From contig JAICSO010000030.1 in NCBI GenBank assembly GCA_025936825.1, positions 1 to 46,365 on the forward strand: a stretch of DNA of 46,365 nt, read 5' to 3'. Both the position numbers and the translations under genes were made by a program. The notes below the pieces were generated by a model, which saw only the letters and a program-made list of their open reading frames with translations, had not been told where the DNA came from and did no database searches. The stretch comes from Terriglobales bacterium. GTDB lineage: Bacteria > Acidobacteriota > Terriglobia > Terriglobales > Acidobacteriaceae. This document shows, piece after piece, positions 4,508 to 43,747 of the stretch (the stretch's first letter is position 1; every line of letters begins with the position of its first letter).

Positions 4508-4524
4508 GTTCAATACTGACCATC
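4508..4524 (+). promoter_or_regulatory. Copy of recurring motif upstream of zinc-ribbon gene
   Basis: GTTCAATACTGACCATC lies 25 bp before ATG 4550. The same sequence with two changes lies before the paralogous zinc-ribbon gene at 15419. It fits the window-wide consensus described in the findings. The binding protein is unknown. Confidence 0.5.
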
Positions 4525-4549
4525 ACGACCGAGGAGCCTGTGGTAAACA

Positions 4550-4759
4550 ATGGCTATGGCGAAAAGGCTCTGTCTTGACTGCGGAGGCGAACTGGTCATG
4601 GCGTTTCATCCTAGTGAAAAGGCATGGCACGCTCCGGGTACGGGGGTTCCCCCCACGCAAGTTGCACGTTGGAGATGCGGTACCTGTGGAAACAGCTTCA
4701 CCGCTGAACAACTCCGCTCTGTTAAGGTGCTGAAATCTGCAGCCGTCGAGCAAGCCTAG
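4550..4759 (+). CDS. Small zinc-ribbon protein, CGGEL family copy 1
   Basis: The 69-residue product has two knuckles, CLDCGGEL near residue 8 and WRCGTCGNSFTAEQLR near 42, which should bind one zinc ion. Two paralogues with the same layout lie at 15419-15700 and 24611-24952. ATG 4550 or 4556 can serve as start. The recurring upstream motif is at 4508. Such single zinc ribbons often bind nucleic acid or proteins, but no specific role can be assigned. The stop codon falls inside a hairpin at 4755-4776. Confidence 0.75.
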   Translation: MAMAKRLCLDCGGELVMAFHPSEKAWHAPGTGVPPTQVARWRCGTCGNSFTAEQLRSVKVLKSAAVEQA

Positions 4760-4776
4760 CAAACAACCTTGCTAGG
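4755..4776 (+). terminator. Hairpin at the 3' end of the zinc-ribbon gene
   Basis: CCTAGCAA and TTGCTAGG form a perfect 8-bp stem around a six-base loop, followed by TTTCAG. The T run is short, so it may be a weak terminator or an mRNA-stabilising hairpin. The TAG stop codon lies in the left arm. Confidence 0.4.
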
Positions 4777-4842
4777 TTTCAGTATGTCCAAGCTAAATCT
4801 GATCAATCCTGCAGCAGCACCGCTCTATCCGCTACTTGACCC

Positions 4843-5043
4843 CTAAGCGGACTTCAATACTTTTCCGCACTCCAAACAGCAAGTCTCGTATCGGGGCGTG
4901 ATGAGTCCGCAGAATGGGCAAATTCGCTGTCTGGCGAAATCGCCGTCGTGCCTTTCGAAGCCCAACTTCTCTCTCAATGCGGCACTCATGAAAGCGCGGG
5001 CGCTGCGAATCCGAATAAGCAACGGGTGAAGAATAGAAGACAA
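4843..5043 (-). CDS. Small zinc-ribbon protein
   Basis: The frame encodes up to 66 residues. The C-terminal half holds two knuckles, CPFCGLITPRYETCCLECGK, a classic short zinc ribbon, preceded by a helical segment ALREKLGFERHDGDFARQ. The start may be TTG 5043, which has AAGGTG about ten bases upstream, or ATG 4989 with no clear ribosome site. It follows the gene at 5112-5339 in the same direction. The overlapping longer frame (4832-5140) lacks the zinc pattern and is a shadow. Confidence 0.6.
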   Translation of the reverse strand: MSSILHPLLIRIRSARAFMSAALREKLGFERHDGDFARQRICPFCGLITPRYETCCLECGKVLKSA

Positions 5044-5111
5044 GATTGCATCTCACCTTGCAGAACTCCGACCGGGAGGCAGCAAACCGACTTCGCCAGA
5101 ACGAAAAAACA

Positions 5112-5339
5112 CTAACCTGACCACAGCCGAAGTTTCTCAATATTCATGCGAGGGTGTCGCTTGAGAAGCCACCGCAATCTCCGCTGGGGGATGCTCTCGG
5201 CCCAGGACGGTTTCTGTTCTGGCTCATTTATGCTTATGGAATTCATGGCGTCGTGCGTCTCAGAAACTGCCGGAGAATCTCCATGATCGGGCTGATAAAA
5301 AACTCGTAAAACAATGTTCGCAGTGGATGCTTCATGCAC
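5112..5339 (-). CDS. Small hypothetical protein
   Basis: The 75-codon frame starts at GTG 5339 with AGGTGAGGTG immediately upstream, a strong ribosome site. The product is hydrophilic, with a basic helical end (PQRRLRWLLKRHPRMNIEK). It is downstream of the secreted repeat protein, 109 bp away, and upstream of a zinc-ribbon gene, all on the minus strand. Nothing identifies its function. Confidence 0.45.
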   Translation of the reverse strand: MHEASTANIVLRVFYQPDHGDSPAVSETHDAMNSISINEPEQKPSWAESIPQRRLRWLLKRHPRMNIEKLRLWSG

Positions 5340-5448: not shown

Positions 5449-6255
5449 TTACAATCCATCCTTTGCCTCGCCCGCGATCGTCCCCAGTTCTGCAGCCGTG
5501 AGTCGTGAACGATCGCAAAATCCATAGCCGCTCACGCATGCCTTGTAGTTGCGGCGATGTTCAGCTATCGCCAGCACACCAGCCTCGGATGCCGTCAGCG
5601 CTGAGTAGTCGCAGGTCTCCATGCCCTCTTTGCAGGCGACAAGGTTCCGCTGGTGTTCCCCTGCTACAACTTTGGCGGCCTGCTCTGGACTCAGCCGAGA
5701 GCGGTCGCAATCGCTCCAGCCACTCATGCAGCTGGAGAAATTATGCTGAAGTTGAGCAGTGTCAGCTTGACGTGCTTCGATGGCGGACAACTTCGTGCGA
5801 TCGCAGGGTTCAATCGCACCTCTGCAATTCGCCAGGTTTCTCTCACGCTTCGTTGCGGCAACGTCAGTCGTTTCGGACCGAGTCAGCTCGACATCATGGC
5901 AAGGCTCTACAGCAATCTTGCAGTCCTCGACCCTGCGGTCCCGCTCCATTGCGCTGACGCGCTGCGCTTCCTTGACCGTCAGCCGGGAATGATCGCAAGA
6001 TGTAAATCCGTTCTCACAATTAGAGACATTGCGCTGGTGCTCCGCAACCATGAGCGCAGTCAACTCCGCCTCGGAAAGCTTTGAGCGGTCACAATAGCCC
6101 CATCCGTTTCGACAATCGGAAACGTTCCGCTGGTGATCGGACATGTCAGCCTGCTGTGCAGACAAGACGGCTGAAAGAAAGATGAAGCAGAGCACAGCTA
6201 CCTGGAAGAAAAAGTTGTGTTCGCTGATCCGCATAACAGCCTTTGTTCTCACCAA
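5449..6255 (-). CDS. Secreted protein of seven 32-residue CX6C repeats
   Basis: The 268-residue product has an N-terminal signal sequence (hydrophobic stretch about 15-33, ending LSAQQ). Residues 38-261 are seven consecutive repeats of exactly 32 residues. Each has Cys at repeat positions 11 and 18, giving Cys 48/55, 80/87, 112/119, 144/151, 176/183, 208/215 and 240/247. The consensus is roughly EHQRNxxxCxxGxxxCDRSRL then T-x-x-EA. The paired cysteines suggest one disulfide per repeat in the periplasm or outside, and the helical character suggests a solenoid; both are inference. I recognise no named domain. The start may be TTG 6255 or GTG 6252 (GAGAGGT upstream). A copy of the recurring motif lies at 6363. 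Confidence 0.85.
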   Translation of the reverse strand: MVRTKAVMRISEHNFFFQVAVLCFIFLSAVLSAQQADMSDHQRNVSDCRNGWGYCDRSKLSEAELTALMVAEHQRNVSNCENGFTSCDHSRLTVKEAQRVSAMERDRRVEDCKIAVEPCHDVELTRSETTDVAATKRERNLANCRGAIEPCDRTKLSAIEARQADTAQLQHNFSSCMSGWSDCDRSRLSPEQAAKVVAGEHQRNLVACKEGMETCDYSALTASEAGVLAIAEHRRNYKACVSGYGFCDRSRLTAAELGTIAGEAKDGL

Positions 6256-6362: not shown

Positions 6363-6382
6363 GGCTGGTCTGAATTGCTCAC
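6363..6382 (-). promoter_or_regulatory. Copy of recurring motif upstream of repeat-protein gene
   Basis: On the minus strand this reads GTGAGCAATTCAGACCAGCC, about 108 bp before the repeat-protein start. Eighteen consecutive bases (TGAGCAATTCAGACCAGC) are identical to the copy at 25929-25948 upstream of the SYLF gene. Confidence 0.55.
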
Positions 6383-6471: not shown

Positions 6472-7154
6472 TCAGTCCAGTAGAACCACATTCAGAAGCG
6501 AGCTGTGGACTTGCAGGCCACCTTCCAAGCCGCCGGCGTAATGAATGAACCCCAACTTTCTGAACCGATTCATAAAGAAGCTCACACGTGAACGCGTAGT
6601 GCCAACCATCTCTGCCAGGGTCTCTTGGCTGATCTTGGGGACGACCGTCTCTGGAACTCCCTCTTTTCCAAAATGCGCGAGCATAAGAAGGACACGCGCA
6701 AGTCTTTTCTCACTGGAATTAAAAAGGTGGTCCACCAGGTCTTCTTCGTAACGAATGTTGCGTGCGAGCAGATACGCTACGAACATGTCGGAGAAGGCGT
6801 GCTCTCGGTGAAGCACATCCATCATTGCCTTCTTGTCGATACGTAGGAGCTTGCAGTCTGTCAGTGCCGACGCTGATCCTATGCGCAGGGTCTGACCGGC
6901 CAGAGAGCCTTCCCCGAAAAAGCTGCTTCACCCAATATTGCAATAGTCGCTTCTTTGCCGGTCTTAGAAACTACAGTGAGTTTTACTCTACCCTTCTGAA
7001 TATAGAAGATGGCATCCGCCGCGTCGCCTTGGGCAAAGATCGGATGCTTTTTTAATACGGTGATGCTCTTCCTGCCTTCTCCAAGGGTCGCCAGAAAAAC
7101 CTTAGGGTCGAATGCACGGCTCGCCTTGTCAGCAGAAGAGCGCATCAAAGTCAT
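6472..7154 (-). pseudogene. Crp/Fnr-family regulator with one frameshift
   Basis: Two frames together encode a complete Crp/Fnr protein. The first (start 7154) carries the cyclic-nucleotide-type domain through FAQGDAADAIFYIQKGRVKL to EAAF. The second carries the end of that domain, the dimer helix and a winged-helix motif (ISQETLAEMVGTTRSRVSFF) to the stop at 6472. They join if one T is restored in the run that appears as AAAAA at 6917-6921 on the plus strand. The intact paralogue at 30506-31186 is very similar throughout. Either the gene is inactivated or the base is a homopolymer sequencing error. A truncated 91-residue effector domain would be made as written. Confidence 0.85.
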
Positions 7155-7572
7155 TCTATCGCCAATATGCCAAAACCAGCCGAATCACTCCCGAACTTGG
7201 TGTCACCGTTGGATTCAGCGCCCTCCATTCCCACGGGAAAAAGTCGCAAGCCGCCTATTTGCGGGCGTAAATCTATCCACAACTCTCGCGTTATGAAACT
7301 GACCAGCATCGAGAAGTACAGGGCTCGGCGCAGAAAAGCGCCGGAAGAGCAGAAATAGACCGTCCTTTCTAACTATGTTGGTCGCGAGCTCGACTAGACC
7401 GATGCGTGCTGTAAACAAAGGACATTTCGCTGAGATCGGAAACCAGATTGCTAACGCCGGTGTTCCAGCGTAGCATCAGACTAGTGGGACTGGACCGAAG
7501 TGTCGTGCGCAGGCTCGCACCAATCTCCAAGCAAGCTGCGCAACTTTGAAGATCACCCTCAAGACTGAGCTC

Positions 7573-7875
7573 ATGACCAATATTTTTGTCGGGAATCTCG
7601 ATATCACGGCCACCGAGCAACAACTGCGAGAACTTTTTTCGGCACACGGAGCGGTTGAAACTGTCACGATTGTCAAGGACCGGGACACTGGTGAGCCACG
7701 CGGTATCGCTTTCGTCGAAATGGCACAAGCGACCGAAGCTAAGGGCGCAATTGGCGCGCTAGATGGGCACGAACTCAATGGGCGTCCCATGCGCGTTAAC
7801 GAGGCTCGTCCGAAAGCGCAGCCGGGCCCGACACGTGATTCCGGCATGAGAGGTCATCGGCGACACAACATGTGA
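7573..7875 (+). CDS. RRM-type RNA-binding protein
   Basis: The product of about 100 residues is a single RNA-recognition motif. RNP2 is NIFVGNL at residues 3-9 and RNP1 is RGIAFVEM near 43-50, followed by a short Gly/Arg/His-rich tail. Bacterial proteins of this type bind single-stranded RNA and are often cold- or stress-induced. ATG 7573 is preferred because translation then begins MTNIFVGNL as in the family; the longer frame from TTG 7546 adds nine residues. The long leader, 7155-7572, contains no other gene I can support. Confidence 0.9.
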   Translation: MTNIFVGNLDITATEQQLRELFSAHGAVETVTIVKDRDTGEPRGIAFVEMAQATEAKGAIGALDGHELNGRPMRVNEARPKAQPGPTRDSGMRGHRRHNM

Positions 7876-8703: not shown

Positions 8704-10311
8704 ATGCAAAGTGAACCCCTCCCCCTCGAAAACATCCATCTCGATGCTAACGCACCGGATTTGCTCACTGCCGTTCGAATGCAGGGCCTGGACGTGGTGG
8801 CGGGGGATATCACAGATTCATGGTTAATTCCCGAGCCGAAGTCCGGTGATGGAGAGGATGAAGTAGAGCTAGACCTGAATACAGCTGCTCCCGATGCATC
8901 TACGGACCCTGTGCGTCTTTATCTGCACGAAATGGGCGCGACTTCATTGCTGACACGGGAACAGGAAGTAGAAATTTTCAAGCGCATTGAACGTGGACAA
9001 CGCCGCGTATTGAAAGCGCTATCGCGTTCGCCTTTTGCACTGCGTCAAATTTTGGCGATTGAGCCGGACCTCGGGTCTGGTGTGCGCTCAATTCGAGACA
9101 TCGTGAGTTTCGATGATGCGGAAATCACCGACGAAATGTTGTGCGAGCGGCTTGATGAGCTGAGGGGACACATCGCTCAGCTCCGCCAACGTAGTAAGCG
9201 TGCGGACATCCTTTCTGCCCGTCTGCAGCGTATCCCGATAAAGAAGAAGGCACGTGAACATCTCCGATGCCGATGGCAGTTGGCGCGTGAAACAGTCAGA
9301 ATCTCACTCGCGCTCCGCAGCCTCGGTCTTGCCCCTTCGGAACATAATCGCTTGCTTCAGGCTTTAAAAAATACTGTGCAAACCATGCGCTCGCGGGATC
9401 ATCACCTTAGCGCTGTGGAGAAAAAGATCGCCACCGCCGGATCTGAAGAACTCAGGAGTCGGTACCGCGACATCCGGCGACAACATCGTGTCCAGATGAA
9501 CCAGATGGAAAGCACTGCTGGCATTACCTTTGCTGAATTACGCGAGACCCACGGCAGGATCGTCCAGGGGGAAATGGCGACAGAACAAGCGAAGCACGAG
9601 ATGATTGCAGCCAACCTGCGACTTGTTGTCTCGATCGCCAAAAAATATGCTAACCGTGGCCTTCACTTCCTAGACCTGATCCAGGAAGGAAACATCGGCC
9701 TAATGAAAGCCGTGGACAAATTCGAGTACTGGCGTGGATACAAATTTTCCACGTACGCCACGTGGTGGGTTCGCCAGGCGGTCAGTCGAGCGCTTGCTGA
9801 TCAAGCGCGCACTATTCGCCTCCCGGTGCACATGAGTGAAGTTGTGAATAAATTGATTCGCACTTCTCGCCTACTGGTGCAATCGCTAGGCCGCGAACCC
9901 ACGTCAAACGAGATTGCCAAACAGATGGACATCCCGGAAGCCAGAGTGCGCTACGCCCTCAAGATCATGCGGACACCTGTCTCGCTGGAGACGCCAATAG
10001 GAACAGAGGCGGATTCTCGCCTCGGCGACCTCATCGAAGATCGTGCTTCGGTTTCGCCTGCGGAGTCGGCCATGGAAAATAACCTGAAGGAACGAACGGC
10101 TCGTGTATTGCGCACCCTTAGCCCGCGTGAGGAGAAAGTTCTCAGAATGCGCTTTGGCATGGAGGATGGCTCGGCACATACCCTGGAAGAAGTTGGCCGC
10201 TGTTTCGACGTCACCCGTGAACGTATTCGTCAGATTGAGGCTAAGGCATTGCGCAAACTGCGGCATTCATCTCGCTCGAAGGAACTGAGATTACTTCTCT
10301 CCGCAGATTAG
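8704..10311 (+). CDS. RpoD-like sigma-70 factor (group 1/2)
   Basis: The 535-residue product directs RNA polymerase to promoters. Region 1.2 begins near residue 77 ([11 protein letters not shown]), a non-conserved insertion follows, region 2 spans about 295-365 ([19 protein letters not shown], then [17 protein letters not shown] near 338), region 3 is [15 protein letters not shown], and region 4 ends with [19 protein letters not shown] near 503. It has only about 75 residues before region 1.2, so region 1.1 is short or absent compared with E. coli RpoD. Trp replaces the usual Arg in the KFEYRRG segment of region 2. These traits suggest a secondary RpoD paralogue and not the essential one, which I infer without seeing the rest of the genome. 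Confidence 0.9.
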
Positions 10312-12794: not shown

Positions 12795-13787
12795 GAATCG
12801 TGCTTGAGACATTTTCGTGGCTCGCGTGCTAGTGATTTTGGGATGCGGAGGGGGCACAGAGCCGGATATAGCCGTCATCCGCCCAGAAATGCGGCTAGAG
12901 ATCCGGGGGAAGCGGTACTCCCCTAGGGGGGCACAGGAAACGATTGGACAATCGACAGTAATCGGAGAGGTACCCTGGAGTTATGGACGATCATAGCGGG
13001 TGTGGATGGTGAACGGTGACACGGGCAGGCCCAGCGCAGTTCCACGCACTGACTCTTGTCTAAGCGATTCTGTTTGGGATGTCGCGGCCATCGATGTGAG
13101 GGCCTCAACGCCCACCTGAAAATCCCTCGGTATAACCGTGCGGAATACCCCTCGCAGAAAAAGTTATTGCCGCTCTTTTTACCGCAGGGGAACTTCCCGA
13201 CGGAAACGCTCGCAGAGTCCGGTGCCTGCAAAAAAGCTTCCAGCGCTCACATTTGGAAAATCAGCAAAAGTTTGGCGAAAGTTCTCGTCGTGAATAGTCT
13301 GGAACTAAAAGAAATTCCGAGGCTTAGCATCACGAATTGGACTCGCGAGCACAAATTCAGCGTGAAAGCTGCGCTCTGCGCCAAGTCGATCCGCCCTAAA
13401 TATCTGATAGCACGCAGGATTGGCTAAAGGTGCTCTGCTGTTCACACTGCCGCTCCAGAGAAACCGTCTTTGCTGCAACCAGCATCTCTCATTTGCTCGT
13501 ACAAATACTGTGCAGAATGACTCAATCCTGAGTCCTAGAGGCGAAACTCGGATAGCGAACACTGGCGGTTCAAAGGGACACACGTGGTCCTACACGGTTA
13601 AGTTCCGCCAATCGTCTTCTCTACCAGGCTACAAAGTGGTCAATTTTGACCGGATTTTCCCACGAAGCCCGCGGGACAATTTTTACTGCTTCATTTTTTC
13701 TCGGATTCATGAACTGCTGAGCTGTTTCCGAAGTTTCGAAAGACCCAGAATCATCCGTTTGCTCGCAAGTGAAGTGCCTGTTCGCCC
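12795..13787. other. Long region without a supportable gene
   Basis: Nearly 1 kb between the small gene at 12462 and the radical SAM gene. Frames of about 100 codons exist on both strands (13056-13427 plus, 12923-13231 minus) but none has a ribosome site or protein-like composition. It contains the palindrome GGTCAATTTTGACC at 13638 and a smaller inverted repeat GACTCA-4-TGAGTC at about 13519-13535. It may hold a long leader, a non-coding RNA or decayed sequence. Confidence 0.4.
13638..13651 (+). promoter_or_regulatory. Perfectly symmetrical copy of the recurring motif
   Basis: GGTCAATTTTGACC is a 14-bp palindrome, 136 bp before the radical SAM start. It is the most symmetrical version of the window-wide motif and implies a dimeric DNA-binding protein. 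Confidence 0.45.
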
Positions 13788-15365
13788 ATGGGTACAAGGA
13801 GGCAACAACACGTGCGCGTTCATTTGATCAACCCCAGTGACGTCTCTTTTGGCACCGCCGTAATCACCCCGCGATGGCTGTATGTTCTCGCTTCGGCGAC
13901 ACCGGCAAGTTATGGCGAGCCGGTGCTGACGGATGAAACCCTCGAAAGGATTGACCTGGACCGAATTGAAGCCGGGGACGTGGTGGGAATTGGCATTCAT
14001 ACCGCCAACGCTCTCCGTGGATACGCGATCGGGAAAATGGCACGCGCCCGCGGCGCCTCTGTGGTATTCGGAGGGATTCACGCGACACTCTATCCGAACG
14101 AAGCTCACGAACTGGGTGGTGCACATGCCGTGGTTAAAGGCGATGGGGACGTAGTCTGGTCGAAAGTGTTGGCCGACTGCTCTCGCGGAACCCCTTTGCT
14201 CGTTTATGAAGGGGGCCGTATTGATGCCTCAGACTTCTTGCCTGCGCGCTGGGACCTGGTGCCCCGCAAGAGCTACATGTGGGCGTCGGTTCAAACGGTG
14301 CGTGGCTGTCCCAAGCACTGCTCGTTCTGCTCGGTGTGGCGGACCGACGGTCAACGGCCGCGCCAGCGCTCGTCAGATGTAGTGGTGGAAGAGATTGTGC
14401 AACTGCGACGACTTGGATTTCGCTTCATCGCCCTGGCCGATGATAACTTCTACCCGGTCACTCTTACCGATCTCCGCCTGGCCGAACAGCAGAACAACCT
14501 GGCGCGCGTAAATGAACTGAAAAGCATTCGCGCGGAACGTTTTGCTTTGATGGAACGGCTCGCGCAGCTTCCGTCCGACACCATCTTCTTTACGCAGATC
14601 ACCATGGAAGCCGCAGAAGACGGCGAGTTCCTGAATGCCATGCAAGCCGCGCACATCAAGGGCGCGCTCGTGGGCATCGAGTCGGTGACACCAGAAGGCT
14701 TGAAGGATGTCTACAAAGAATTCAATTGCGCAGGCGACGATCTGGTAACTCGGCTGAAAAAATTCCGCGCCCATGGGATTTACGTGCTTGGCTCTTTCAT
14801 CTTTGGCCTGCCCAGCGATCGCGAACAAACCTTCGATGCAACGGCCGCGGTCGCATCCCGCGCGGAGATTGCTTTTGCCCAGTTTGTAATGCTGACGCCG
14901 TATCCTGGCACCGTCGATTTCATCAAGTGGGAGAAACAGATGGATGCAGCCAACATGAAGGTTGGAGACATTCCGATCACCCGTCGCTGGCTGATTCCGC
15001 TAGGGCTACGGCCTAAGCTCTACTGGCCTCATCCGACAATGTCGGCGGAGGAAATTCGCCAACGCACACAATCCGTTTGGGACAACTTTTATGGCCTGAA
15101 GTCGATATGGACACGTTCGCGTTTTATAAAGTCGCTGCGGGCACGTCTTGCTTTCGTGCTGATCTCGAAGATCTACAGGCAGATGTACGCAGACACCGGG
15201 ATCGCGACTGATAGCGCGCGAGTCTCTCGGTCCGCGCAGTGGGCTCGGTGGTTGGCCAGACCCTGCCAGCGGCTCTTTGCGGGGACTCCGATGCCCACGC
15301 TTAAAGTTCCCAGACGCCGGACTGAGGATGCCGGTATCGGCCTAACGACCCTCGAGGCCGATTGA
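13788..15365 (+). CDS. B12-binding-domain radical SAM protein
   Basis: The 525-residue product has an N-terminal cobalamin-binding Rossmann-like domain (about 10-150, with VVFGGIHATLYPNEA and VKGDGD), then a radical SAM domain whose CX3CX2C cluster ligands are Cys174, Cys178 and Cys181 (GCPKHCSFC). Later motifs ADDNFY, GIESVTPEGL and SFIFGLPSD are typical of the B12 radical SAM class that methylates or rearranges unactivated carbons, including lipid, hopanoid and antibiotic substrates. The C-terminal 100 residues (from about 420) are specific to this protein. No partner genes lie nearby to name the substrate. Start ATG 13788 lies behind TTCGCCC, no clear ribosome site. Confidence 0.9.
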   Translation: MGTRRQQHVRVHLINPSDVSFGTAVITPRWLYVLASATPASYGEPVLTDETLERIDLDRIEAGDVVGIGIHTANALRGYAIGKMARARGASVVFGGIHATLYPNEAHELGGAHAVVKGDGDVVWSKVLADCSRGTPLLVYEGGRIDASDFLPARWDLVPRKSYMWASVQTVRGCPKHCSFCSVWRTDGQRPRQRSSDVVVEEIVQLRRLGFRFIALADDNFYPVTLTDLRLAEQQNNLARVNELKSIRAERFALMERLAQLPSDTIFFTQITMEAAEDGEFLNAMQAAHIKGALVGIESVTPEGLKDVYKEFNCAGDDLVTRLKKFRAHGIYVLGSFIFGLPSDREQTFDATAAVASRAEIAFAQFVMLTPYPGTVDFIKWEKQMDAANMKVGDIPITRRWLIPLGLRPKLYWPHPTMSAEEIRQRTQSVWDNFYGLKSIWTRSRFIKSLRARLAFVLISKIYRQMYADTGIATDSARVSRSAQWARWLARPCQRLFAGTPMPTLKVPRRRTEDAGIGLTTLEAD

Positions 15366-15368
15366 TGT

Positions 15369-15386
15369 GTTCAATTATGACCATCC
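15369..15386 (+). promoter_or_regulatory. Copy of recurring motif upstream of zinc-ribbon copy 2
   Basis: GTTCAATTATGACCATCC lies 32 bp before ATG 15419 and just after the radical SAM stop. It matches the copy at 4508 upstream of the paralogous gene at 15 of 17 positions, in the same orientation and at a similar distance. Confidence 0.55.
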
Positions 15387-18114: not shown

Positions 18115-18195
18115 TTCGCAAATTTAGAACAAAATACAGGATCCGGTATGTGCAGTATTGAACAGTTTGGCAGCAACCCTGGCTGGAAATTGTGC

Positions 18196-25083: not shown

Positions 25084-25800
25084 TTATTTCTTCTCTTCTC
25101 TTGCTTCCGCAATGCTGGCCTGTTGTCCAGCGGTAGAAACGGCCTTTACGAATGCCTCAGCGCTTTCCGGAGTGGATACTTTTCCGGAGAGGATGTTTCG
25201 AAACCTCATGTGCTTGCCGTAAATAGCGCGCGTGGAGTCGTCATCCTGCTGCACCACTGCTCCTTCCAAAGTAATGCCGGCGAACGCGCCTCTCGAGCGT
25301 GAGTATGTCAACACCTGTGTGTTCATCTTCCAGTCGGTTCCAGCGGAGGCGTGACGGCCAACCGGGCCGGCAGCTACGGATCCTTCGCCAGATAGTTGGA
25401 ACTTACTTGAGAGCAGATGCTGGAAGCCTTGTTCGTTCATGACCAGCATGACCAGATCCACACCCTCGACGCCGATCTGTAATCCCCAACTTCCCCCGCC
25501 GACAGAAACAAATGCTGGCGCACTCCAACCGTTGGAGGTGCGGCACGAAGCAACACCACGCCCGTGTTTCCCGCCGAAGATGAATCCGCCCTTAATCAGG
25601 TCGGGGACGACCAGGATGCACTTTGCGTTGCTCAACACTTCTTCGGGGATACCCTTGTCAGGAGTCGCCATGATCGAGTGCAGAACATCGACCGAAGACT
25701 GCAGGCGCGCGACCGAATCTTCGCGGGCCGACCCTGCCCAGGCGAACGTCGCACACAGGCCCATGAAACTAACCAGCAAAACTGATAAAGCTTTCTTCAT
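25084..25800 (-). CDS. SYLF-domain lipid-binding protein (Ysc84-like)
   Basis: The 238-residue protein has a signal peptide (KKALSVLLVSFMGLCATFAW) and a SYLF domain: IPEEVLSNAKCILVVPDL, KGGFIFGGKHGRGVASCR, WSAPAFVSVGGGSWGLQIG and a C-terminal RGAFAGITLEG. Bacterial SYLF proteins are exported and bind lipids; many are stress-induced. ATG 25800 is preceded by AAGGAAATATTC. The recurring motif lies 128 bp upstream at 25929. Confidence 0.9.
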   Translation of the reverse strand: MKKALSVLLVSFMGLCATFAWAGSAREDSVARLQSSVDVLHSIMATPDKGIPEEVLSNAKCILVVPDLIKGGFIFGGKHGRGVASCRTSNGWSAPAFVSVGGGSWGLQIGVEGVDLVMLVMNEQGFQHLLSSKFQLSGEGSVAAGPVGRHASAGTDWKMNTQVLTYSRSRGAFAGITLEGAVVQQDDDSTRAIYGKHMRFRNILSGKVSTPESAEAFVKAVSTAGQQASIAEAREEKK

Positions 25801-25928: not shown

Positions 25929-25948
25929 GCTGGTCTGAATTGCTCAGA
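25929..25948 (-). promoter_or_regulatory. Copy of recurring motif upstream of SYLF gene
   Basis: On the minus strand this reads TCTGAGCAATTCAGACCAGC and is identical over 18 bp to the copy at 6363-6382 upstream of the repeat-protein gene. Confidence 0.55.
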
Positions 25949-26411: not shown

Positions 26412-26431
26412 AGTCTGGTCAAAATTGGACC
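26412..26431 (-). promoter_or_regulatory. Copy of recurring motif upstream of response regulator
   Basis: Minus strand GGTCCAATTTTGACCAGACT, about 40 bp before the receiver start and overlapping the 3' end of the preceding gene. It has one extra base in the left half compared with the consensus. Confidence 0.4.
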
Positions 26432-26904: not shown

Positions 26905-26937
26905 ATGGCCTCAATATGTACTAGTACCGGATGCCAA

Positions 26938-26959
26938 GTTCTGTTCACAATTGCACACC
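26938..26959 (-). promoter_or_regulatory. Copy of recurring motif upstream of pseudo-receiver
   Basis: Minus strand GGTGTGCAATTGTGAACAGA plus AC, 34 bp before the start at 26904. Eighteen bases, TGTGCAATTGTGAACAGA, are identical to the copy at 40127. Confidence 0.55.
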
Positions 26960-27047: not shown

Positions 27048-27051
27048 CCGC

Positions 27052-28056: not shown

Positions 28057-28172
28057 GGAGTTTGCCTCACTATGAGGCTAAGCGGCGGGTGAGAAGATTA
28101 GCTGTGTCCTTTTGATCAGTTAAGGTCATTTAAGCGTCTGCGCCATAGGAGGTAAGTGCGGGGCAGTTCGGC

Positions 28173-28190
28173 GAGCAATATTGAACAGAC
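28173..28190 (+). promoter_or_regulatory. Copy of recurring motif upstream of receiver gene
   Basis: GAGCAATATTGAACAGAC lies 103 bp before ATG 28294. It is close to the consensus and points towards the gene. Confidence 0.5.
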
Positions 28191-29087: not shown

Positions 29088-29107
29088 TGAGCAATTGTGA
29101 GCAGACC
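29088..29107 (+). promoter_or_regulatory. Copy of recurring motif upstream of LuxR regulator
   Basis: TGAGCAATTGTGAGCAGACC lies 78 bp before ATG 29185 and points towards the gene. Confidence 0.55.
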
Positions 29108-29184
29108 AGGGAACTTACAAATGGCAGAATCCAGGAACTCAGAATCAGAGCACGTTATAGATGTTATGTGGTAGGAGGTTCTTC

Positions 29185-29901
29185 ATGAATACGCTTCGCA
29201 TATTGCTAGCCGATGATCATCCAGTGTTTCGTCTTGGCTTGTGTTCTCTGCTTGGATCTCACAAAGGTTGGGAAATCTGCGGACAGGCTTCGGACGGACG
29301 TGCGGCTGTGGAGAAGTGCGGGCAACTGAAGCCGGACGTGCTCATTCTGGACATTGGCATGCCAGAACTCAACGGTGTGGACGCGGCGCGGCGCATCTTG
29401 AGAGACAATCCTAAGCAAAGAATTCTGATCCTGACGGATGTAGCTTCAGAACAAGTGATCCGCGAGTGTCTGGCCGCAGGCGTTCGCGGTTGGGTCTACA
29501 AATCTGATGACACCGCTGAATTGATGACCGCGGTGGAGGCTCTGCAACAGTACCGATCCACCTTCAGTTCACGTGTCTGCGACTTGATTCTGGATGGCTA
29601 CCTGCAACGCCTCCATCCGGATCCAGTCGTATTGGCGCCACGATTGTCATTTCGCGAGCGCGAAGTTGTTCAACTTGTCGGTGAGGGCAAGACTTCAAAA
29701 GAAGTCGCGGCAAAGCTGGGCATTTCATTGAAGACCGCAGAGACCCACCGCAGCAATATTCTGATGAAGCTCAACCTTCATACCACTGTGGAACTGGTGC
29801 TGTACGCCGTCCAGAACGAAATCGTCAACATCGTGCGCTTCCCAATGGTTGTTCCCCGGGCGCCCCAGAATGGAAATGGACATGCGCAGATCGCGGTCTG
29901 A
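29185..29901 (+). CDS. NarL/FixJ-family response regulator
   Basis: The 239-residue product has a receiver (Asp10-Asp11, phospho-acceptor Asp56 in LILDIGMPELNG, Thr84, Lys106) and a LuxR-type helix-turn-helix at about 156-205 (LSFREREVVQLVGEGKTSKE then ISLKTAETHRSNI). On phosphorylation such proteins bind promoter DNA as dimers. ATG 29185 has GTAGGAGG six bases upstream; the start at 29161 would precede that site. The cognate kinase may have been the broken histidine kinase at 38938, but that is speculation. Confidence 0.95.
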   Translation: MNTLRILLADDHPVFRLGLCSLLGSHKGWEICGQASDGRAAVEKCGQLKPDVLILDIGMPELNGVDAARRILRDNPKQRILILTDVASEQVIRECLAAGVRGWVYKSDDTAELMTAVEALQQYRSTFSSRVCDLILDGYLQRLHPDPVVLAPRLSFREREVVQLVGEGKTSKEVAAKLGISLKTAETHRSNILMKLNLHTTVELVLYAVQNEIVNIVRFPMVVPRAPQNGNGHAQIAV

Positions 29902-29931
29902 AAAGCGGTCGGCGATGCCGAAAAGATACAT

Positions 29932-30177: not shown

Positions 30178-30234
30178 GATTTGCCAGCCACCAGCAGCGA
30201 GGCTGAGATGAGCCATCGCCGTGAGGAGATCATC

Positions 30235-30528: not shown

Positions 30529-31186
30529 GCAGTGAGCTATGAACCTGCAGTCCTCCGTCTTCTCCCGCGGAGTAATGAATGAATCCCATTTTTCGGAACC
30601 GATTCATGAAGAAGCTGACCCGCGAGCGGGTGGTTCCCACCATCTCCGCCAGGGTTTCCTGGCTGATCTTTGGAACCACACTTTCCGGCACCCCCTCTTT
30701 GCCAAAACGAGCGAGCATCAGAAGGACGCGGGCGAGCCGCTTTTCGCTGGAATTGAACAACTGGTCAACCAAATCTTCTTCGTAGCGGACGTTCCGAGCC
30801 AGCAGGTAGGCGACGAACATTTCTGAGAGAGTCGGTTCGCGGTGCAGCGCCTGCATCATGGCATTCTTCTCAATCCGCAGCACGGCGCAATCGGTGATTG
30901 CAGTTGCCGTGCCCATGCGGAGTGGCTGTCCCGCAAGCGAGCCTTCGCCGAAGAAGCTCCTGTCGCCCAGAATGCCAATCGTCGCTTCCTTACCGGTCTT
31001 GGAAACGACCGCGAGCTTGACCTTGCCTGTCTGGAGATAAAAAACCGCATCCGCGGGGTCCCCTTGCCCGAAAATAGTCCGCTTCTTCGGAAAGAGCATG
31101 GCTTTCCTGCCCTCGCCGATTGTGGCTAGCAGCGCCTCCGGGTCGAATTGGCGATTCTTCTTGGCAGTTGTGACGGGGCTCATCAC
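30506..31186 (-). CDS. Crp/Fnr-family transcriptional regulator
   Basis: The 226-residue product has a cyclic-nucleotide-type effector domain (FGQGDPADAVFYLQTGKVKL, GDRSFFGEGSLAG) to about residue 115, a dimerisation helix, and a winged helix with ISQETLAEMVGTTRSRVSFF as recognition unit. It lacks the Cys cluster of Fnr in its N-terminus, so it is unlikely to sense oxygen through an iron-sulfur cluster; the effector is unknown. It is the intact paralogue of the frameshifted gene at 6472-7154. A sequence TGAGCCATTGTGCTCAG lies upstream at 31220, also present reversed at about 4479. Confidence 0.9.
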   Translation of the reverse strand: MMSPVTTAKKNRQFDPEALLATIGEGRKAMLFPKKRTIFGQGDPADAVFYLQTGKVKLAVVSKTGKEATIGILGDRSFFGEGSLAGQPLRMGTATAITDCAVLRIEKNAMMQALHREPTLSEMFVAYLLARNVRYEEDLVDQLFNSSEKRLARVLLMLARFGKEGVPESVVPKISQETLAEMVGTTRSRVSFFMNRFRKMGFIHYSAGEDGGLQVHSSLLNVVLHD

Positions 31187-31368
31187 TCATCATTCTAGCT
31201 CTGAATGGCAAGCGGGAAATGAGCCATTGTGCTCAGTATCTTATGGAGAAGTGCGCGAACCTGAAGATGGCTGAAGAGCACCGGTTTACGTCAACCAGAC
31301 GGCCTACCCTCTTGGGGTCAGCAGTTGCCGGGCCAAACTGATTGGCAACCGGTGCGAGGAGAAGCGAC

Positions 31369-31813: not shown

Positions 31814-31848
31814 AAACAACATATTGAGCCGGACCTACCGGAGTAACT

Positions 31849-31867
31849 GATCAATTCTGACCAGCTT
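31849..31867. promoter_or_regulatory. Copy of recurring motif upstream of zinc-finger microprotein
   Basis: GATCAATTCTGACCAGCTT on the plus strand, 36 bp upstream of the minus-strand microprotein. The core TCAATTCTGA is nearly symmetrical, so orientation may not matter. Confidence 0.45.
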
Positions 31868-32549: not shown

Positions 32550-33238
32550 TCAGGCGTTCTCATGAGACTGCGTTTGTTTAGCTCCGCTGAGGTCGCGACT
32601 CGTGAGCCCCTCGCGGTGACAGAATCGCAACAGAACTCGCAAATGACAGCAGAAACCAAGGCGTGTGCGGGGAGCCACCTTCGGCCTGTACTGCACAATG
32701 AAAGCGGCCAGAACTGCCGAGGACAACTGGCTGAAAGAAGAGATGCCTGTTCCCTTGAGGTACTGAGCAAACTCATCCAGGTGGTGACGGTAATTGCGAA
32801 TGGTGCTTCCTGCGAATCCAGGTTCGCTACGCAAATACTCAGCAAACCCCGGAGCCTCTGATTCGAGTGGAAACGGGTACCGTCGGCGATTGCGCGTCAC
32901 TGGCTCCTTGCAAGCCAGCTGCAGCATCTGCCGCACCCCACATTCAGCATCAATCGCATGCTTGCGCACAGCGACGGCCGTCTTTGCCTTGGCTCCATGT
33001 TGCTCCAGCCATTGGGACACGAATTCCTTTATATAGGCCTTGCAAGGAGCAATGTCTTTGCAACCCTTCTTCTGGGCGAACTCGGCAAAGTGAAAAAGCA
33101 GCGGCAGGCGGCGATGCACAACAAGGCGAGAGTAACCATGCGCTTGCAACCATTCCAAATAGCTCTCAATCTGAGGGCCAACCAACTACCGCGGACTCTG
33201 TCGATGGTTGAAGGCTTAACGTAATAATCTTCGAGCAT
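32550..33238 (-). pseudogene. Truncated and frameshifted tyrosine-recombinase-like integrase
   Basis: ATG 33238 opens a protein reading LEDYYVKPSTIDRVRGSW, then the frame breaks at about 33179-33185 and the homologous continuation GPQIESYLEWLQAHGYSRLV is in the next frame. The rest contains two SAM-like core-binding domains of a phage-type integrase (GFAGSTIRNYRHHLDEFAQY, RTRLGFCCHLRVLLRFCHRE) and stops at 32550 after DLSGAKQT. The whole catalytic domain with its Arg-His-Arg-Tyr residues is absent, and downstream DNA does not contain it. The gene cannot recombine DNA as it stands. It is the only mobile-element gene in the window. Confidence 0.8.
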
Positions 33239-38473: not shown

Positions 38474-38663
38474 AATGAACACCCTTTCTCCTGTGCGTCT
38501 CCGCTGCGACTAGCTAGCCACTGGGCTCGAATTGCGGGCGCAGAGCAGTTGGAAACTTTCGAGAGACGTAGAAGACAATGATCAACGACATGGTGCAGCG
38601 AAGCTGGTCAACATTGCACAGCCGCTGTGGATGGATCTCAAGTTCGGGCAGGATACGCGTGAC

Positions 38664-38685
38664 GATCAATATTGACCAGCACTCG
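38664..38685 (+). promoter_or_regulatory. Copy of recurring motif near histidine-kinase remnant
   Basis: GATCAATATTGACCAGCACT followed by CG. It is almost symmetrical (TCAATATTGA). No intact gene lies downstream; the histidine-kinase fragment begins 253 bp away. Confidence 0.4.
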
Positions 38686-40126: not shown

Positions 40127-40148
40127 TGTGCAATTGTGAACAGACACG
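40127..40148 (+). promoter_or_regulatory. Copy of recurring motif
   Basis: TGTGCAATTGTGAACAGACA followed by CG. Eighteen bases are identical to the copy at 26938-26959. It lies 174 bp upstream of the broken small gene at 40323. Confidence 0.5.
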
Positions 40149-40322
40149 AGTAACGACAACACACTAGATTGACCCGAAAATGGGAGACGGACGCGGAACT
40201 ACTGCCCCACCTGGTTCCGCGCATGGCGCAGCCAAGGATCCCCGCTGCGCCATTCTGCTATTCACCGCGAACTTCAATCCTGAGTCTTTTGGGCATGCTG
40301 TAACTCTAAGCCCCGTTAGCCT

Positions 40323-40497
40323 ATGGCACGCAGAAGGCCCGTCAGAGAACGCATTGAAAAGTTGCGGGAGGAGATCGCGTAAATCAGGGAATCCAATCGC
40401 CTACACCTGCAAGCGGCAACAGACCGCCTCGGAGCACGAACTTCGACTTGAAAGATTGCAGGAAATCCAGAACAAATTGGCGGCGCTGAACAACTGA
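40323..40497 (+). pseudogene. Small Arg-rich helical protein gene, stop plus frameshift
   Basis: ATG 40323 opens MARRRPVRERIEKLREEIA, then TAA at 40380-40382. The same frame resumes IRESNRLHLQAATDRLGA, and a further frame gives EHELRLERLQEIQNKLAAL to a TGA at 40497. Together they form one long charged helix, matching a small conserved acidobacterial pattern I recall (MARRR...RERIExLREEIAQIRExNR). Two lesions (CAA to TAA, and a shift near 40432) show that the gene is decayed. The longer plus frame 40180-40497 reads the start in the wrong frame. Confidence 0.6.
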
Positions 40498-41223: not shown

Positions 41224-42140
41224 GCACCACGTTCCCAGTTCTGGCTGCGCTCGGTTCGTTCCCGTGACCCTGCATCTGACACAGCTCAAGTTCTTCTGAG
41301 TCGTCGACCTAGTCTTCGCCTAACTAGCGGTCGGCATGGCGGTCGCGGCCTGCGATTAAGAGTCCTCTCACACTTCCCTTGGACAGCTTAGCTTTGGGAA
41401 GACCATGATTCTGAGCAAGAGTGACCACCTGCGCACCCCTGCGTTTGCGCCGTTATTACTGCTTACCGCGGGTCGGAGAAACGCTCCGCGCGAATCGCAG
41501 TTGTGTGCTCTAAAAGCGCCTATGACGTGCTCTGGTTGCCGCGTGGTTCTAGCAGAGCGTGGTTCTGCCACGACTAGCAGTTGTGTACAGTTCTGACCAG
41601 ACCACGTTCTCGCCGTCTGATAGCCTTCGTCCTTGTGGATGGCTATAGAACATGCCAAAGAAGCACACTCGAAGACGGTCAGGCTCAGCAACTCTCTTTA
41701 GCGGCAAGAAAGAAATGGGCAAGGCTTGCATTGCCACATTCACTCGGCAAGCTGGTGACCGGCCGGCCGCCCGCGGGCGAACGGCTGCAAGTTCTAACGA
41801 TAAACCCAACAGCAGAGCCGAGACAGAACGCATACTCCTCGACTACGCAAGAAAAGTTGGAAGTTAACCCTCGTTTCAATGGCCATCGCTTTATTGATTC
41901 CGGGGTTCGATGCTCGGCCAAGTCTCATAATCCGTTGTCTCTCAGTGCTGGCAAAAAATAGGGAGCACGTTTGTCCATTACTTCTACCCTTTTGAGAATA
42001 TCCGCTGTTTCCGACGGTCAACTTGAATCCGAAAGACCCTTCACTGCGCGGCTCTTGGGTGCAAACGGTGGGCTCGTGACTGGCGCCATCGCACCGACCA
42101 CACGCCTTCGGCAGGATTACTGACAACAAAGAGGGAGGGT
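41224..42140. other. Region without a well-supported gene
   Basis: Several frames of 60-125 codons occur on both strands. The best is a basic 71-codon frame at 41652-41867 (PKKHTRRRSGSATLFSGKKE) without a ribosome site; I do not assign it. A partial motif match (ACAGTTCTGACCAGACC) lies at about 41588. Confidence 0.4.
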
Positions 42141-42209
42141 GACGTCAATCATTCATTCGCGATCCTCATCAAACTACCGGAGTCTCTTGGCTCAAAAGAA
42201 GCCAAGAAG

Positions 42210-42530
42210 ATGATGCGCGAATTGAAACTCCAAATCACAGGCGAACCACCTCTGGTGATAATGGATCTTTCTCGTGTGACGAGGATGGATTGTGCGGGGC
42301 TGGACGGATTGTTGCTCTGTATGCGAGAGATTGCCAAGCAAGACGGTGTCATTCAGGTGCGCACGATTTCACCGGAAGCGGCCACCTTTCTGGAACTTTT
42401 CCGAATGGACCGCCTGTTACAGAGATTCGCAACGTTGCCGGCGCAAGTTTTGGGTTTCACTGTGGCAGCAGTTGCCACCGCCAAGGGAACACCATCTGCA
42501 GCCGTCCAGTCCCAGCTAGTCGCAGCTTAG
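42210..42530 (+). CDS. STAS-domain protein lacking the phospho-site Ser
   Basis: ATG 42210 gives 106 residues of a STAS fold: LKLQITGEPPLVIMDLSRVT, RMDCAGLDGLLLCMREIAKQ, GVIQVRTISPEAATFLELF. In anti-anti-sigma factors the motif is DSSG with a phosphorylated Ser; here it is DCAG, so switching by that phosphorylation is unlikely. Homologous-looking sequence (VNHSFAILIKLPESLGSKEA) continues upstream in frame to about 42141 with no ATG, GTG or TTG, only GAGGGAGG before it, so the true start is either non-canonical or lost by a small deletion. Confidence 0.75.
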   Translation: MMRELKLQITGEPPLVIMDLSRVTRMDCAGLDGLLLCMREIAKQDGVIQVRTISPEAATFLELFRMDRLLQRFATLPAQVLGFTVAAVATAKGTPSAAVQSQLVAA

Positions 42531-42732
42531 GGCCATCTCCATTCCTCGAATGGCTGACCCTTACAGTCTGACTTCTAGTGCTCTGGTTTTAGTGTGATGG
42601 CCGAGCCGTTGGGCACGGCGATCTCAACGCGAATTGCGTTCGACAATGTTGGCCGCAGAGATTCAGGCGCGCAACTTTCTTGCAACGCTAGAATTGTAAA
42701 GAAGCACGGACTCGAAACTTCTGAGGTGAACG

Positions 42733-43641
42733 GTGCTCGCTATCCGTAAGAGAGCAGCGTGGCTGACGATCAAACGATCGCTAGCAACAATCTACAACGA
42801 CGTTTATGACGAACACCTCTTCGTATTCGCCGCCGGGCTGTCGTACTATTTCGTGCTCTCACTGTTTCCGCTCCTGGTTTCGATGGCAGTGCTGCTCGGG
42901 TATGTACCTATTCCCCACCTGTTTGATGGCCTTCTGGGCCTGATGGCCCGGCTGGTCCCAGGTGATGGAATGAGTTTGGTGCGGAACATCGTGGCTGACG
43001 TCAGTCATGCACACAAGCATTTTCTTACGCTCGGGTTAGTCTTCACGTTTTGGACAGCGTCCAGCGGATTTGCTGCAATAATCGACGGCCTTGATCTTGT
43101 CTATCGTGTCCGTGAGACCCGCCCGGTGTGGAAGACTCGACCACTTGCGCTGGGACTGACGTTGCTCGCAGGATCTCTGCTGGTCGTCGCGGTTGGTTTG
43201 ATGGTTGAGGGGACCTACCTTGGGACTTGGTTTACTAGTGAATTTAACCTGAGTACAGCCGTGCTTACGGCGTGGCGCACGCTCCGCTGGGGTATCGCAG
43301 CAGCGTTTGCCGTGCTCGCGCTGGAACTGGTCTACCACTTCGGGCCCAATGTGAAGCAGCGCTTCCGCGACAGCCTGACAGGCGCGGTTGTTGCGGTAAG
43401 TGCTTGGATCGGTGTGTCATACCTGCTGGGGATTTACTTCCGCCATTTCGAATCTCTCGACAATACTTATGGGCCGTTAGGCGCTGCCATTGGTTTGTAC
43501 GTGTGGTTCTACTTGTCCGGCTTTGCCGTTCTGCTCGGCGGAGAAATCAATTTCCTGCTTGGCGAAGTACGACACGCCACAAAGCCACAATCGTCGCGAC
43601 CGGTCTACGCTGACATCAAGAACCTGAATTCCGCGGCCTGA
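42733..43641 (+). CDS. YihY/BrkB-family inner-membrane protein
   Basis: The 302-residue product has six predicted membrane helices (AAGLSYYFVLSLFPLLVSMA, LTLGLVFTFWTASSGFAAII, LALGLTLLAGSLLVVAVGLM, IAAAFAVLALELVYHF, AVVAVSAWIGVSYLLGIYF, AAIGLYVWFYLSGFAVLLGG) and the family signature YGPLGAAIGLYVWFYLSG. YihY/BrkB proteins are of uncertain function. GTG 42733 is used, with GAGGTGAACG upstream. It stands alone. Confidence 0.9.
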   Translation: MLAIRKRAAWLTIKRSLATIYNDVYDEHLFVFAAGLSYYFVLSLFPLLVSMAVLLGYVPIPHLFDGLLGLMARLVPGDGMSLVRNIVADVSHAHKHFLTLGLVFTFWTASSGFAAIIDGLDLVYRVRETRPVWKTRPLALGLTLLAGSLLVVAVGLMVEGTYLGTWFTSEFNLSTAVLTAWRTLRWGIAAAFAVLALELVYHFGPNVKQRFRDSLTGAVVAVSAWIGVSYLLGIYFRHFESLDNTYGPLGAAIGLYVWFYLSGFAVLLGGEINFLLGEVRHATKPQSSRPVYADIKNLNSAA

Positions 43642-43725
43642 GCTTTCTGTCAGCCAGAGCCACACCTTCTCAGCTGGTCTCACCACGATAAACGTAAGCT
43701 AGCCAGATTCTTCCATAGGCGAGAG

Positions 43726-43747
43726 TGAGCAGTTGTGAACAGACCCC
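43726..43747 (+). promoter_or_regulatory. Copy of recurring motif
   Basis: TGAGCAGTTGTGAACAGACC followed by CC. It has one change from the core of the copies at 29088 and 40127. No protein-coding gene is clear downstream; the inverted repeat at 43816-43862 follows 68 bp later. Confidence 0.45.

What the first reader, a model, noticed from the sequence alone, without database searches (positions are those of the whole stretch)
4508..43747. A recurring ~20-bp palindrome-like motif marks a putative regulon across the window
By eye at least 13 sites share GAGCAATTxTGAxCAGACC or GGTCAATxxTGACC. Sites: 4508, 6363, 13638, 15369, 25929, 26412, 26938, 27030, 28173, 29088, 31849, 38664, 40127 and 43726. 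About ten lie within 150 bp upstream of a gene start, and the genes are of one type: zinc ribbons, receivers, a LuxR regulator, secreted proteins. Near-symmetry implies a dimeric regulator. It matches neither the Crp (TGTGA-N6-TCACA) nor Fnr site. The regulator could be one of the Crp/Fnr or LuxR proteins here, or elsewhere.
Basis: partly seen in the sequence, partly recalled or inferred. Interest (0 to 1): 0.85.

Follow-up and report, generated by a model that had tools for sequence, protein, structure and literature searches.

The report
Acidobacterial Crp/Fnr-type regulon and its promoters
The repeated palindrome is most likely the docking site of a family of gene-switching proteins related to E. 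coli CRP, placed at the standard spot for switching a promoter on, and the pair of switch and site recurs across many soil Acidobacteria although no description of it was seen in the paper listings searched.

Summary
Thirteen of the 14 sites fit one 16-bp palindrome, TG-N-[TG]-CA-N4-TG-[AC]-N-CA (12 score 17 or more, 26412 is imperfect, 27030 fails); seven further strong sites were missed. Of 19 strong window sites, 17 lie outside gene calls although 63% of the window is coding (p 2.8e-6).

Best reading: operator of an acidobacterial Crp/Fnr subfamily (window copy 30506-31186, minus strand). (1) A -10 box lies 29/30 bp from the palindrome centre in 121 of 192 pooled sites (12 control offsets: 4-17), the class II position, centre -41.5. 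(2) In 299 genomes the strict motif tracks this Crp subfamily (81 both, 33 motif only, 34 crp only, 151 neither; p 7e-20) and its copy number; the LuxR-type regulator without Crp adds nothing. (3) Sites precede crp genes, implying autoregulation. (4) The recognition helix keeps Arg180 but has Ser for Glu181, fitting a half-site that keeps G and loses A.

Against: 29 of 44 held-out crp loci lack an adjacent site. Binding, activation and effector are untested.

The parts
   Evidence: PWM 17.6; -10-like CAAACT at 4453-4458
4507..4522 (+). site upstream of zinc-ribbon-like mini-protein 4550-4759
   Evidence: PWM 19.1; ORF; Pfam gives no match over cut-off
4550..4759 (+). predicted target: 69-aa protein with two CxxC pairs (zinc-ribbon-like)
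   Evidence: sequence reading
6366..6381 (-). site upstream of 5449-6234 (261 aa, no Pfam match)
   Evidence: PWM 17.3, no good -10; predicted +1 98 nt from the start; Pfam
6472..7145 (-). broken second copy of the crp gene (two ORFs, in-frame stop)
13637..13652 (+). site upstream of radical-SAM protein
   Evidence: PWM 22.6, -10 GACAAT 13675-13680; sites before orthologues in C119, G004, G022
13812..15365 (+). target: radical SAM protein, 517 aa (525 aa from the 13788 start)
   Evidence: PF04055 3e-13; B12-binding PF02310 below cut-off
15368..15383 (+). site upstream of a second zinc-ribbon-like mini-protein
   Evidence: PWM 19.1, best -10-like only 0.8 bits
15419..15700 (+). predicted target: zinc-ribbon-like protein, 93 aa; predicted +1 at 15418
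   Evidence: zinc-ribbon hits below cut-off
   Evidence: PWM 22.2, -10 TAAATT 18121-18126
   Evidence: PWM 18.6, -10 CATGAT 18688-18693; similar site on C56 at 29120 before the paralogous OmpA-family gene
25084..25800 (-). target: Ysc84/SYLF-domain protein
   Evidence: PF04366 5e-37
25931..25946 (-). site upstream of the Ysc84/SYLF gene
   Evidence: PWM 20.1, -10 CATGAT 25904-25909; sites before homologues in C126, G003, G002, G022
26416..26431 (-). imperfect site upstream of receiver protein 25986-26375
   Evidence: PWM 13.4; strong site before the paralogue on C56 at 36569, score 25.9
26942..26957 (-). site upstream of receiver-like protein 26419-26904
   Evidence: PWM 21.0, -10-like CATATT at offset 31; same before the C56 paralogue at 37104
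28172..28187 (+). site at the called start of receiver protein 28156-28926 (true start probably further down)
   Evidence: PWM 18.9, no good -10; sites before homologues at C56 39447 and G004 13538
29088..29103 (+). site upstream of the LuxR-type response regulator
   Evidence: PWM 17.2, -10 CAGAAT 29125-29130; sites before homologues C56 40520, G004 12447
29161..29901 (+). target: LuxR-type response regulator
   Evidence: PF00072, PF00196
30506..31186 (-). proposed regulator: Crp/Fnr-family protein, helix GTTRSRVSFFMNRF
   Evidence: PF00027 2e-19, PF13545 3e-11
   Evidence: PWM 17.3, -10 TAGAAT 31192-31197
31848..31863 (.). strong site, target unclear
   Evidence: PWM 24.2, best -10-like 2.0 bits on the minus side
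   Evidence: PWM 18.5, -10 CATAGT
   Evidence: PWM 22.5, -10 GATCAT
38663..38678 (+). other member of the back-to-back pair
   Evidence: PWM 20.7, -10 CATATT
40127..40142 (+). site upstream of ORF 40180-40497 (105 aa, no Pfam match)
   Evidence: PWM 20.4, -10 TAGATT 40165-40170; ORF; Pfam
   Evidence: PWM 20.3, -10 TAAGCT
43726..43741 (+). site, target unclear
   Evidence: PWM 19.3, -10 GACAAT

Best explanation
The motif is the operator of a Crp/Fnr-superfamily subfamily of Acidobacteriota, represented in the window by the gene at 30506-31186 (minus strand); the genome holds nine copies in all, seven full-length, one short (C119) and one broken (6472-7145). A homodimer binds TG-N-[TG]-CA-N4-TG-[AC]-N-CA centred at -41.5 of a sigma-70-type promoter whose -35 region is replaced by the right half-site and its CAGAC tail, and activates transcription in the class II manner. 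Targets include crp genes themselves, receiver and LuxR-type response regulators, a Ysc84/SYLF protein, zinc-ribbon-like mini-proteins, a radical-SAM protein and a large glycosyltransferase. Shown by computation: the motif, its intergenic bias, its presence before homologous genes, the -10 geometry, co-occurrence with this Crp subfamily. Inferred: that this protein binds it, that it activates, and what signal it senses (unknown; a single cysteine, so no FNR-type iron-sulphur cluster).
For: Geometry: in 192 distinct sites (PWM 14 or more, pooled from the own genome and relatives) a -10 hexamer peaks at exactly 29 bp from the centre (TANNNT in 44 of 384 orientations, baseline 0.56%, p 2e-42); a -10 above 2 bits at 29/30 in 121 of 192 sites, 60 of 94 in loci outside the PWM training stretches (some of these come from training genomes), 116 of 185 after an ungapped flank-similarity filter, against 4-17, 3-10 and 4-16 in 12 control offsets. 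The PWM covers only 12 bp each side of the centre, so this signal is independent of it. Co-occurrence: 299 genomes, both 81, motif only 33, crp only 34, neither 151; mean motif count 0.20, 0.89, 1.84, 3.22 for 0, 1, 2-3, 4 or more crp copies (n 184, 56, 32, 27); the reversed control pattern occurs in 5 crp-positive and 4 crp-negative genomes; odds ratios 8.1, 5.0, 17.9 and 12.1 in f1, f5, f7 and the other families (f5, 19 genomes, not significant, p 0.17); the LuxR-type regulator without Crp leaves the motif at background. Adjacency: of 44 crp loci in 42 genomes outside the six training genomes, 15 have a site of 16 or more within 300 bp up- or downstream, against none with any of 30 permuted symmetric PWMs. 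Autoregulation: 7 promoter-called sites point at crp genes, six with 31-46 nt predicted leaders and one with 2 nt. Specificity: PMC1274295 (section 8 read) correlates CRP Arg180 with G3 and Glu181 with A6 of wTGTGA; here Arg is kept (G 95%) and Glu is mostly Ser (A replaced by C, 95%).
Against: No binding, transcription-start or expression data. Twenty-nine of 44 held-out crp loci have no adjacent site of 16 or more, and 34 of 115 crp-bearing genomes have no strict match. Thirty-three of 184 crp-negative genomes have a strict match; their mean of 0.20 per genome exceeds the reversed-pattern control (9 of 299 genomes). With a looser pattern, genomes without a P0002 match at 1e-20 (G020, G021, G024) showed 9-11 matches against 0-1 control matches; G020 and G024 have none with the strict pattern, G021 was not in that draw. 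Four of 19 strong window sites have no -10 above 2 bits at offsets 28-31, and two more reach it only at 31. The 299 genomes are related to each other. Gene calls and starts are from my own simple codon-usage caller.
Confidence: 0.86

Rival explanations
1. The operator belongs to another regulator that merely travels with the crp gene, such as the LuxR-type response regulator at 29161-29901.
For: Both genes lie in the same islands, and response regulators are frequent predicted targets; overall LuxR/motif odds ratio 2.0, p 0.008.
Against: Given no Crp, LuxR presence leaves the motif at background (0.18 against 0.20 per genome); given Crp without LuxR it is 1.26. The cut-offs differed (1e-50 for LuxR, 1e-40 for Crp) and only up to 9 LuxR candidates per genome were scored. 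The 5-N6-5 palindrome at -41.5 and the recognition-helix correlation fit Crp/Fnr. Regulators other than these two were not tested.
Confidence: 0.08
2. The sites are ends or remnants of mobile elements (IS ends, MITE or REP-like repeats) scattered in plastic, gene-poor regions.
For: Half of the matches (13 of 26) lie on four contigs that make up 2.7% of the genome; the window and C126 have a coding fraction of 0.63; the window holds a phage-integrase N-terminal domain fragment.
Against: Flanks are mostly unrelated (185 of 192 sites stay after a 50% ungapped identity filter); no transposase among the 26 window proteins scanned with Pfam, of 50 called genes plus three short ORFs; sites before homologous genes and a -10 at fixed spacing are not expected of insertion ends.
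Confidence: 0.02
3. Crp-type operator, but working mainly as a repressor or as a dual regulator at these promoters. (Overlaps with the best explanation, so the odds are not exclusive.)
For: A site at -41.5 overlaps the -35 region, where some Crp/Fnr proteins also repress; autoregulation is often negative (general knowledge). HcpR sites overlapping a -10 box were read as repressing in PMC545781 (passage).
Against: [quoted passage not shown] the -35 element here is degenerate (CAGAC in the oriented consensus), which suggests dependence on an activator.
Confidence: 0.15

Closest known systems
E. coli CRP (TGTGA-N6-TCACA), class II promoters
   Same: cNMP-binding plus HTH_Crp_2 domains; 16-bp palindrome with G at the second position; centre at -41.5
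   Different: Glu181 replaced by Ser, half-site TGNKC instead of TGTGA; sequence match to E. coli CAP structures only about 47 bits; 53 bits against cut-off 266 for the NCBIfam CRP model
PDB 3h3u, 3mzh, 3d0s, 3i54 (probable Crp/Fnr-family regulators; M. tuberculosis CRP by recall)
   Same: closest solved structures by sequence, E 5e-23 to 7e-23
   Different: distant, 85 bits; recognition helix GASRETVNKAL against GTTRSRVSFFM in the alignment
NtcA (TIGR03697)
   Same: best-scoring NCBIfam model; keeps an Arg in the recognition helix (recalled)
   Different: 63 bits against a cut-off of 245; NtcA box GTA-N8-TAC (recalled) lacks the C-A core
HcpR, HcpR2, NnrR, CooA regulons (PMC1274295, PMC545781)
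   Same: same superfamily, regulons also found by comparative genomics; HcpR2 of two clostridia has Ser181
   Different: published consensuses wTGTGA-N6-TCACAw, TTGAC-N4-GTCAA, GTAAC-N4-GTTAC, TTGcg-N4-cgCAA, TGTCGGC-N2-GCCGACA (passages) differ from TGNKCA-N4-TGMNCA; the motif of the Ser181 clostridial proteins is in a figure I could not see

Membership tests
Crp/Fnr superfamily (the proposed regulator) | N-terminal cNMP-binding domain | tested here: met
   PF00027 E 2.4e-19, 69.5 bits against cut-off 27.5
Crp/Fnr superfamily (the proposed regulator) | C-terminal Crp-type helix-turn-helix | tested here: met
   PF13545 E 2.6e-11, 43.7 bits against 27
Crp/Fnr superfamily (the proposed regulator) | binds a two-fold symmetric DNA site as a dimer | not testable with these tools
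   symmetric site associated by co-occurrence and adjacency only
Fnr (oxygen sensor) branch | cysteines for a 4Fe-4S cluster and TTGAT half-site (feature list recalled) | tested here: not met
   one cysteine in 226 residues; half-site TGNKCA
CRP orthologue (cAMP-activated) | NCBIfam CRP equivalog model NF008732 | tested here: not met
   53 bits against cut-off 266
CRP orthologue (cAMP-activated) | binds cAMP | not testable with these tools
   pocket reading inconclusive: Arg kept, next residue Met in the alignment
Class II activator promoter | site centred at -41.5, i.e. 29.5 bp from the first base of the -10 hexamer | tested here: met
   121 of 192 sites at 29/30; transcription starts themselves not mapped
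Class II activator promoter | transcription depends on the bound activator | not testable with these tools
   no expression data
LuxR-type response-regulator regulon | motif presence follows the regulator | tested here: not met
   strata without Crp: 9 of 50 with LuxR and 24 of 134 without have the motif

The most novel reading that the evidence does not exclude
Soil Acidobacteria carry a multi-paralogue Crp system in which many regulators (nine copies in this genome, seven full-length) share one near-invariant recognition helix and one operator, so that different sensor domains would compete for or co-occupy the same class II promoters; regulator, operator-bearing targets and a spare RpoD-type sigma factor spread together as regulon islands.
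Probability: 0.3. Interest if true: 0.72.

Novelty: new member of a known kind. Interest (0 to 1): 0.56.

Why it matters
The paper-library listings I saw held no described Crp/Fnr regulon or operator in Acidobacteriota (no paper; none among the 20, 10 and 12 listed), a phylum abundant in soils. If right, this gives an operator, a promoter model and a regulator family that make a multi-gene response readable from sequence in many genomes, adds an Arg/Ser recognition-helix and TGNKC half-site pair to the Crp/Fnr specificity code, and raises how many paralogues sharing one operator keep their outputs apart.

Tried and rejected
IS ends, MITE or REP-like repeats (my first idea, note): rejected, flanks mostly unrelated and -10 spacing fixed. 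Curated RNA elements and tRNA: none in the window (Rfam at gathering thresholds, ARAGORN). Two separate motifs: rejected, one PWM covers them. LuxR-type regulator as the binder: not supported. Leaderless transcripts as a rule: predicted +1 coincides with a start codon in several window genes, but pooled enrichment of ATG near +1 is modest, so only a remark. The loose pattern was dropped for genome comparison because many of its matches look like repeated coding sequence (my reading); the strict pattern replaced it. Structure prediction was not run: a Crp fold would not have separated the explanations.

Weak points of method: the PWM was built from 23 stretches of six genomes mostly chosen because they hold matches, so in-sample enrichment is circular; held-out and geometry tests carry the argument. 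No whole-genome PWM scan was possible; genome-wide statements rest on pattern searches. The -10 weights and the CRP/FNR/NtcA residue and box facts are recalled, except where a paper passage is cited. Crp and LuxR copy numbers are lower bounds (at most 9 candidates scored per genome). The 299 genomes are a draw from a larger class and are related, so Fisher p values overstate independence; the strata only partly correct this. One search used 55 crp loci, those for which genome search returned loci, not all matches: 12 of 55 have a site of 16 or more upstream, 11 of 54 downstream, 0 of 55 in a 330-bp gene-body segment. In one search the crp-positive/negative comparison used the 30 loci that one search returned (12 of 21 against 1 of 9 with a -10, p 0.04).

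Full report
What was claimed.

Setting. The window is the whole of contig C81 of a 6.54-Mb, 141-contig genome. The best named match to the window's LuxR-type regulator is a MAG named Acidobacteriaceae (55% identity), so I take it as Acidobacteriota; Terriglobia as the class is my inference. My simple gene caller gives about 63% coding in the window.

Observation. The sites are real and enriched (8 against 0.19 expected; 11 against 0.79). All forms, including the short GAGCAATTCAGACC, align on one 16-bp palindrome with 5-mers six bases apart. A symmetric PWM gives C at position 0 (56%), T1 87%, G2 95%, A/G/T at 3, T/G at 4, C5 95%, A6 79%, A7 66%, and the mirror image.

Where the sites lie. Of the 19, 17 are outside gene calls although 63% of the window is coding (p 2.8e-6); over 23 stretches of six genomes 89 of 100 sites of 14 or more are outside gene calls although 75% is coding. 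In the own genome, 5 of 11 matches lie on the window, which is 0.7% of the genome, and 13 of 26 lie on C81, C56, C119 and C126, which are 2.7% of it; the other 13 are one each on eleven further contigs and two on C140. C56 and C126 hold paralogues of the window's genes, and sites sit at matching places: before Ysc84/SYLF genes (C81, C126, G003, G002, G022), radical-SAM genes (C81, C119, G004, G022), the 801-aa glycosyltransferase (C126, C119, G002, G004), LuxR-type regulators (C81, C56, G004) and crp genes. In 1.17 Mb of the 80 named loci only five sites reach 16: three in L058 (Acidobacteriaceae MAG), one in L063 (Acidobacteriales) and one in L095 (named Deltaproteobacteria).

Promoter geometry. 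Pooling 192 distinct sites of 14 or more, a -10 hexamer appears at exactly 29 (and less often 30) bp from the centre: TANNNT in 44 of 384 orientations at 29 against 0.56% baseline. With a 2-bit cut-off, 121 of 192 sites have it at 29/30; twelve control offsets give 4-17; loci outside the PWM training stretches give 60 of 94 (controls 3-10), and the set with dissimilar flanks 116 of 185. The first base of a -10 hexamer is conventionally -12, so the centre is at -41.5, the class II position of CRP and FNR activators (recalled; the FF-41.5 reporter is listed as a class II FNR-dependent promoter in PMC4505428). Promoter-called sites point to a same-strand gene within 450 bp in 48 of 74 cases against 27 of 74 when reversed.

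Which regulator. The window's Crp/Fnr protein P0002 (30506-31186) has cNMP-binding and Crp-type HTH domains and reaches the cut-off of no NCBIfam model. The genome has nine copies: seven full-length, one short (C119) and the broken 6472-7145, which one search lists as two pieces. In 299 genomes of the class, 115 have it at E 1e-40 or better and 114 have the strict motif TGNKCAAWWTTGMNCA, against 9 with the reversed pattern. The two go together: 81 both, 33 motif only, 34 crp only, 151 neither (p 7e-20), and motif number rises with copy number, 0.20, 0.89, 1.84, 3.22. This holds in family f1 (100 genomes, odds ratio 8.1), f7 (50, 17.9) and the pooled other families (130, 12.1); in f5 (19) it is 5.0 and not significant (p 0.17). 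The rival LuxR-type protein has no effect without Crp (9 of 50 against 24 of 134 genomes with the motif). Of 44 crp loci from 42 genomes outside the six training genomes, 15 have a site of 16 or more within 300 bp, none for any of 30 permuted PWMs; 29 of 44 have none. Sites lie upstream or, mostly in other families, 23-77 bp past the stop codon, several with their own -10 by eye. No 330-bp gene-body segment of 55 loci reaches 10.

Specificity. The recognition helix GTTRSRV(S/N)xFMN(R/K)F is nearly invariant in the homologues aligned. PMC1274295 (section 8) correlates CRP Arg180 with G3 and Glu181 with A6 of wTGTGA. Here Arg is kept and Glu is Ser (Ala or Pro in a few); the site keeps that G (95%) and has C in place of that A (95%). 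This fits, but it is a correlation and not proof.

Function. Predicted targets are regulators (crp itself, receivers, LuxR-type, a histidine kinase on C59), Ysc84/SYLF proteins, zinc-ribbon-like mini-proteins, a radical-SAM protein and a glycosyltransferase. The C56 block also carries BON-domain, Mn-catalase, DUF892, Transgly_assoc and Hsp20 genes; no site of 10.5 or more lies directly before any of these, though one lies 268 bp before the first gene (a Ysc84/BON protein) of the row. A stress role is therefore only suggested by neighbourhood. P0002 has a single cysteine, so it is not an FNR-type oxygen sensor; cAMP binding is undecided.

Novelty. Searches for acidobacterial Crp/Fnr regulons returned no paper or none among those listed (20 of 94, 10 of 10, 12 of 343); the search cannot match the slash in 'Crp/Fnr', and subscription papers are missing. 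Term searches in two acidobacterial papers (PMC5900883, PMC7074687) found no Crp. The kind of system is known; this subfamily, its operator and its paralogue expansion appear undescribed as far as these searches go.

Noticed in passing
8704-10311 (+): One of three RpoD-type sigma factors of this genome (others on C97 and C28), above the RpoD_Cterm cut-off; the C28 contig also holds a crp homologue within 1.5 kb.
   Followed up: partly
C56 43134-43544 and C119 start: The last open ORF of C56 and the first of C119 share 47 identical residues, so the two contigs are probably neighbours and the regulon island larger than one contig.
   Followed up: no
25084-31186 and C56 35500-42900: Receivers, a Q-rich protein, a LuxR-type regulator and crp recur together on C56 (crp at a different place within the block), with operators before the paralogous genes.
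   Followed up: partly
L212, L218-L222, L225, L226, L230, L232: A strong site lies 23-77 bp past the crp stop codon, several with a -10-like box at class II spacing by eye; the gene or RNA it drives was not identified.
   Followed up: partly
18149-18164, 26942-26957, 31220-31235, 15368-15383: Predicted +1 falls within 2 nt of a called start codon, hinting at leaderless mRNAs; pooled support is modest.
   Followed up: partly
27052-28056 (-): Glutamine-rich, internally repetitive protein without a Pfam family; 71-72% identical paralogue on C56.
   Followed up: no
7546-7875 (+): Small RRM-type RNA-binding protein (PF00076).
   Followed up: no
32550-33185 (-): ORF with a phage-integrase N-terminal SAM-like domain only.
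   Followed up: no
6472-7145 (-) and C119 8254-8748: Broken second crp copy in the window and an N-terminally short copy on C119 beside the intact ones.
   Followed up: no
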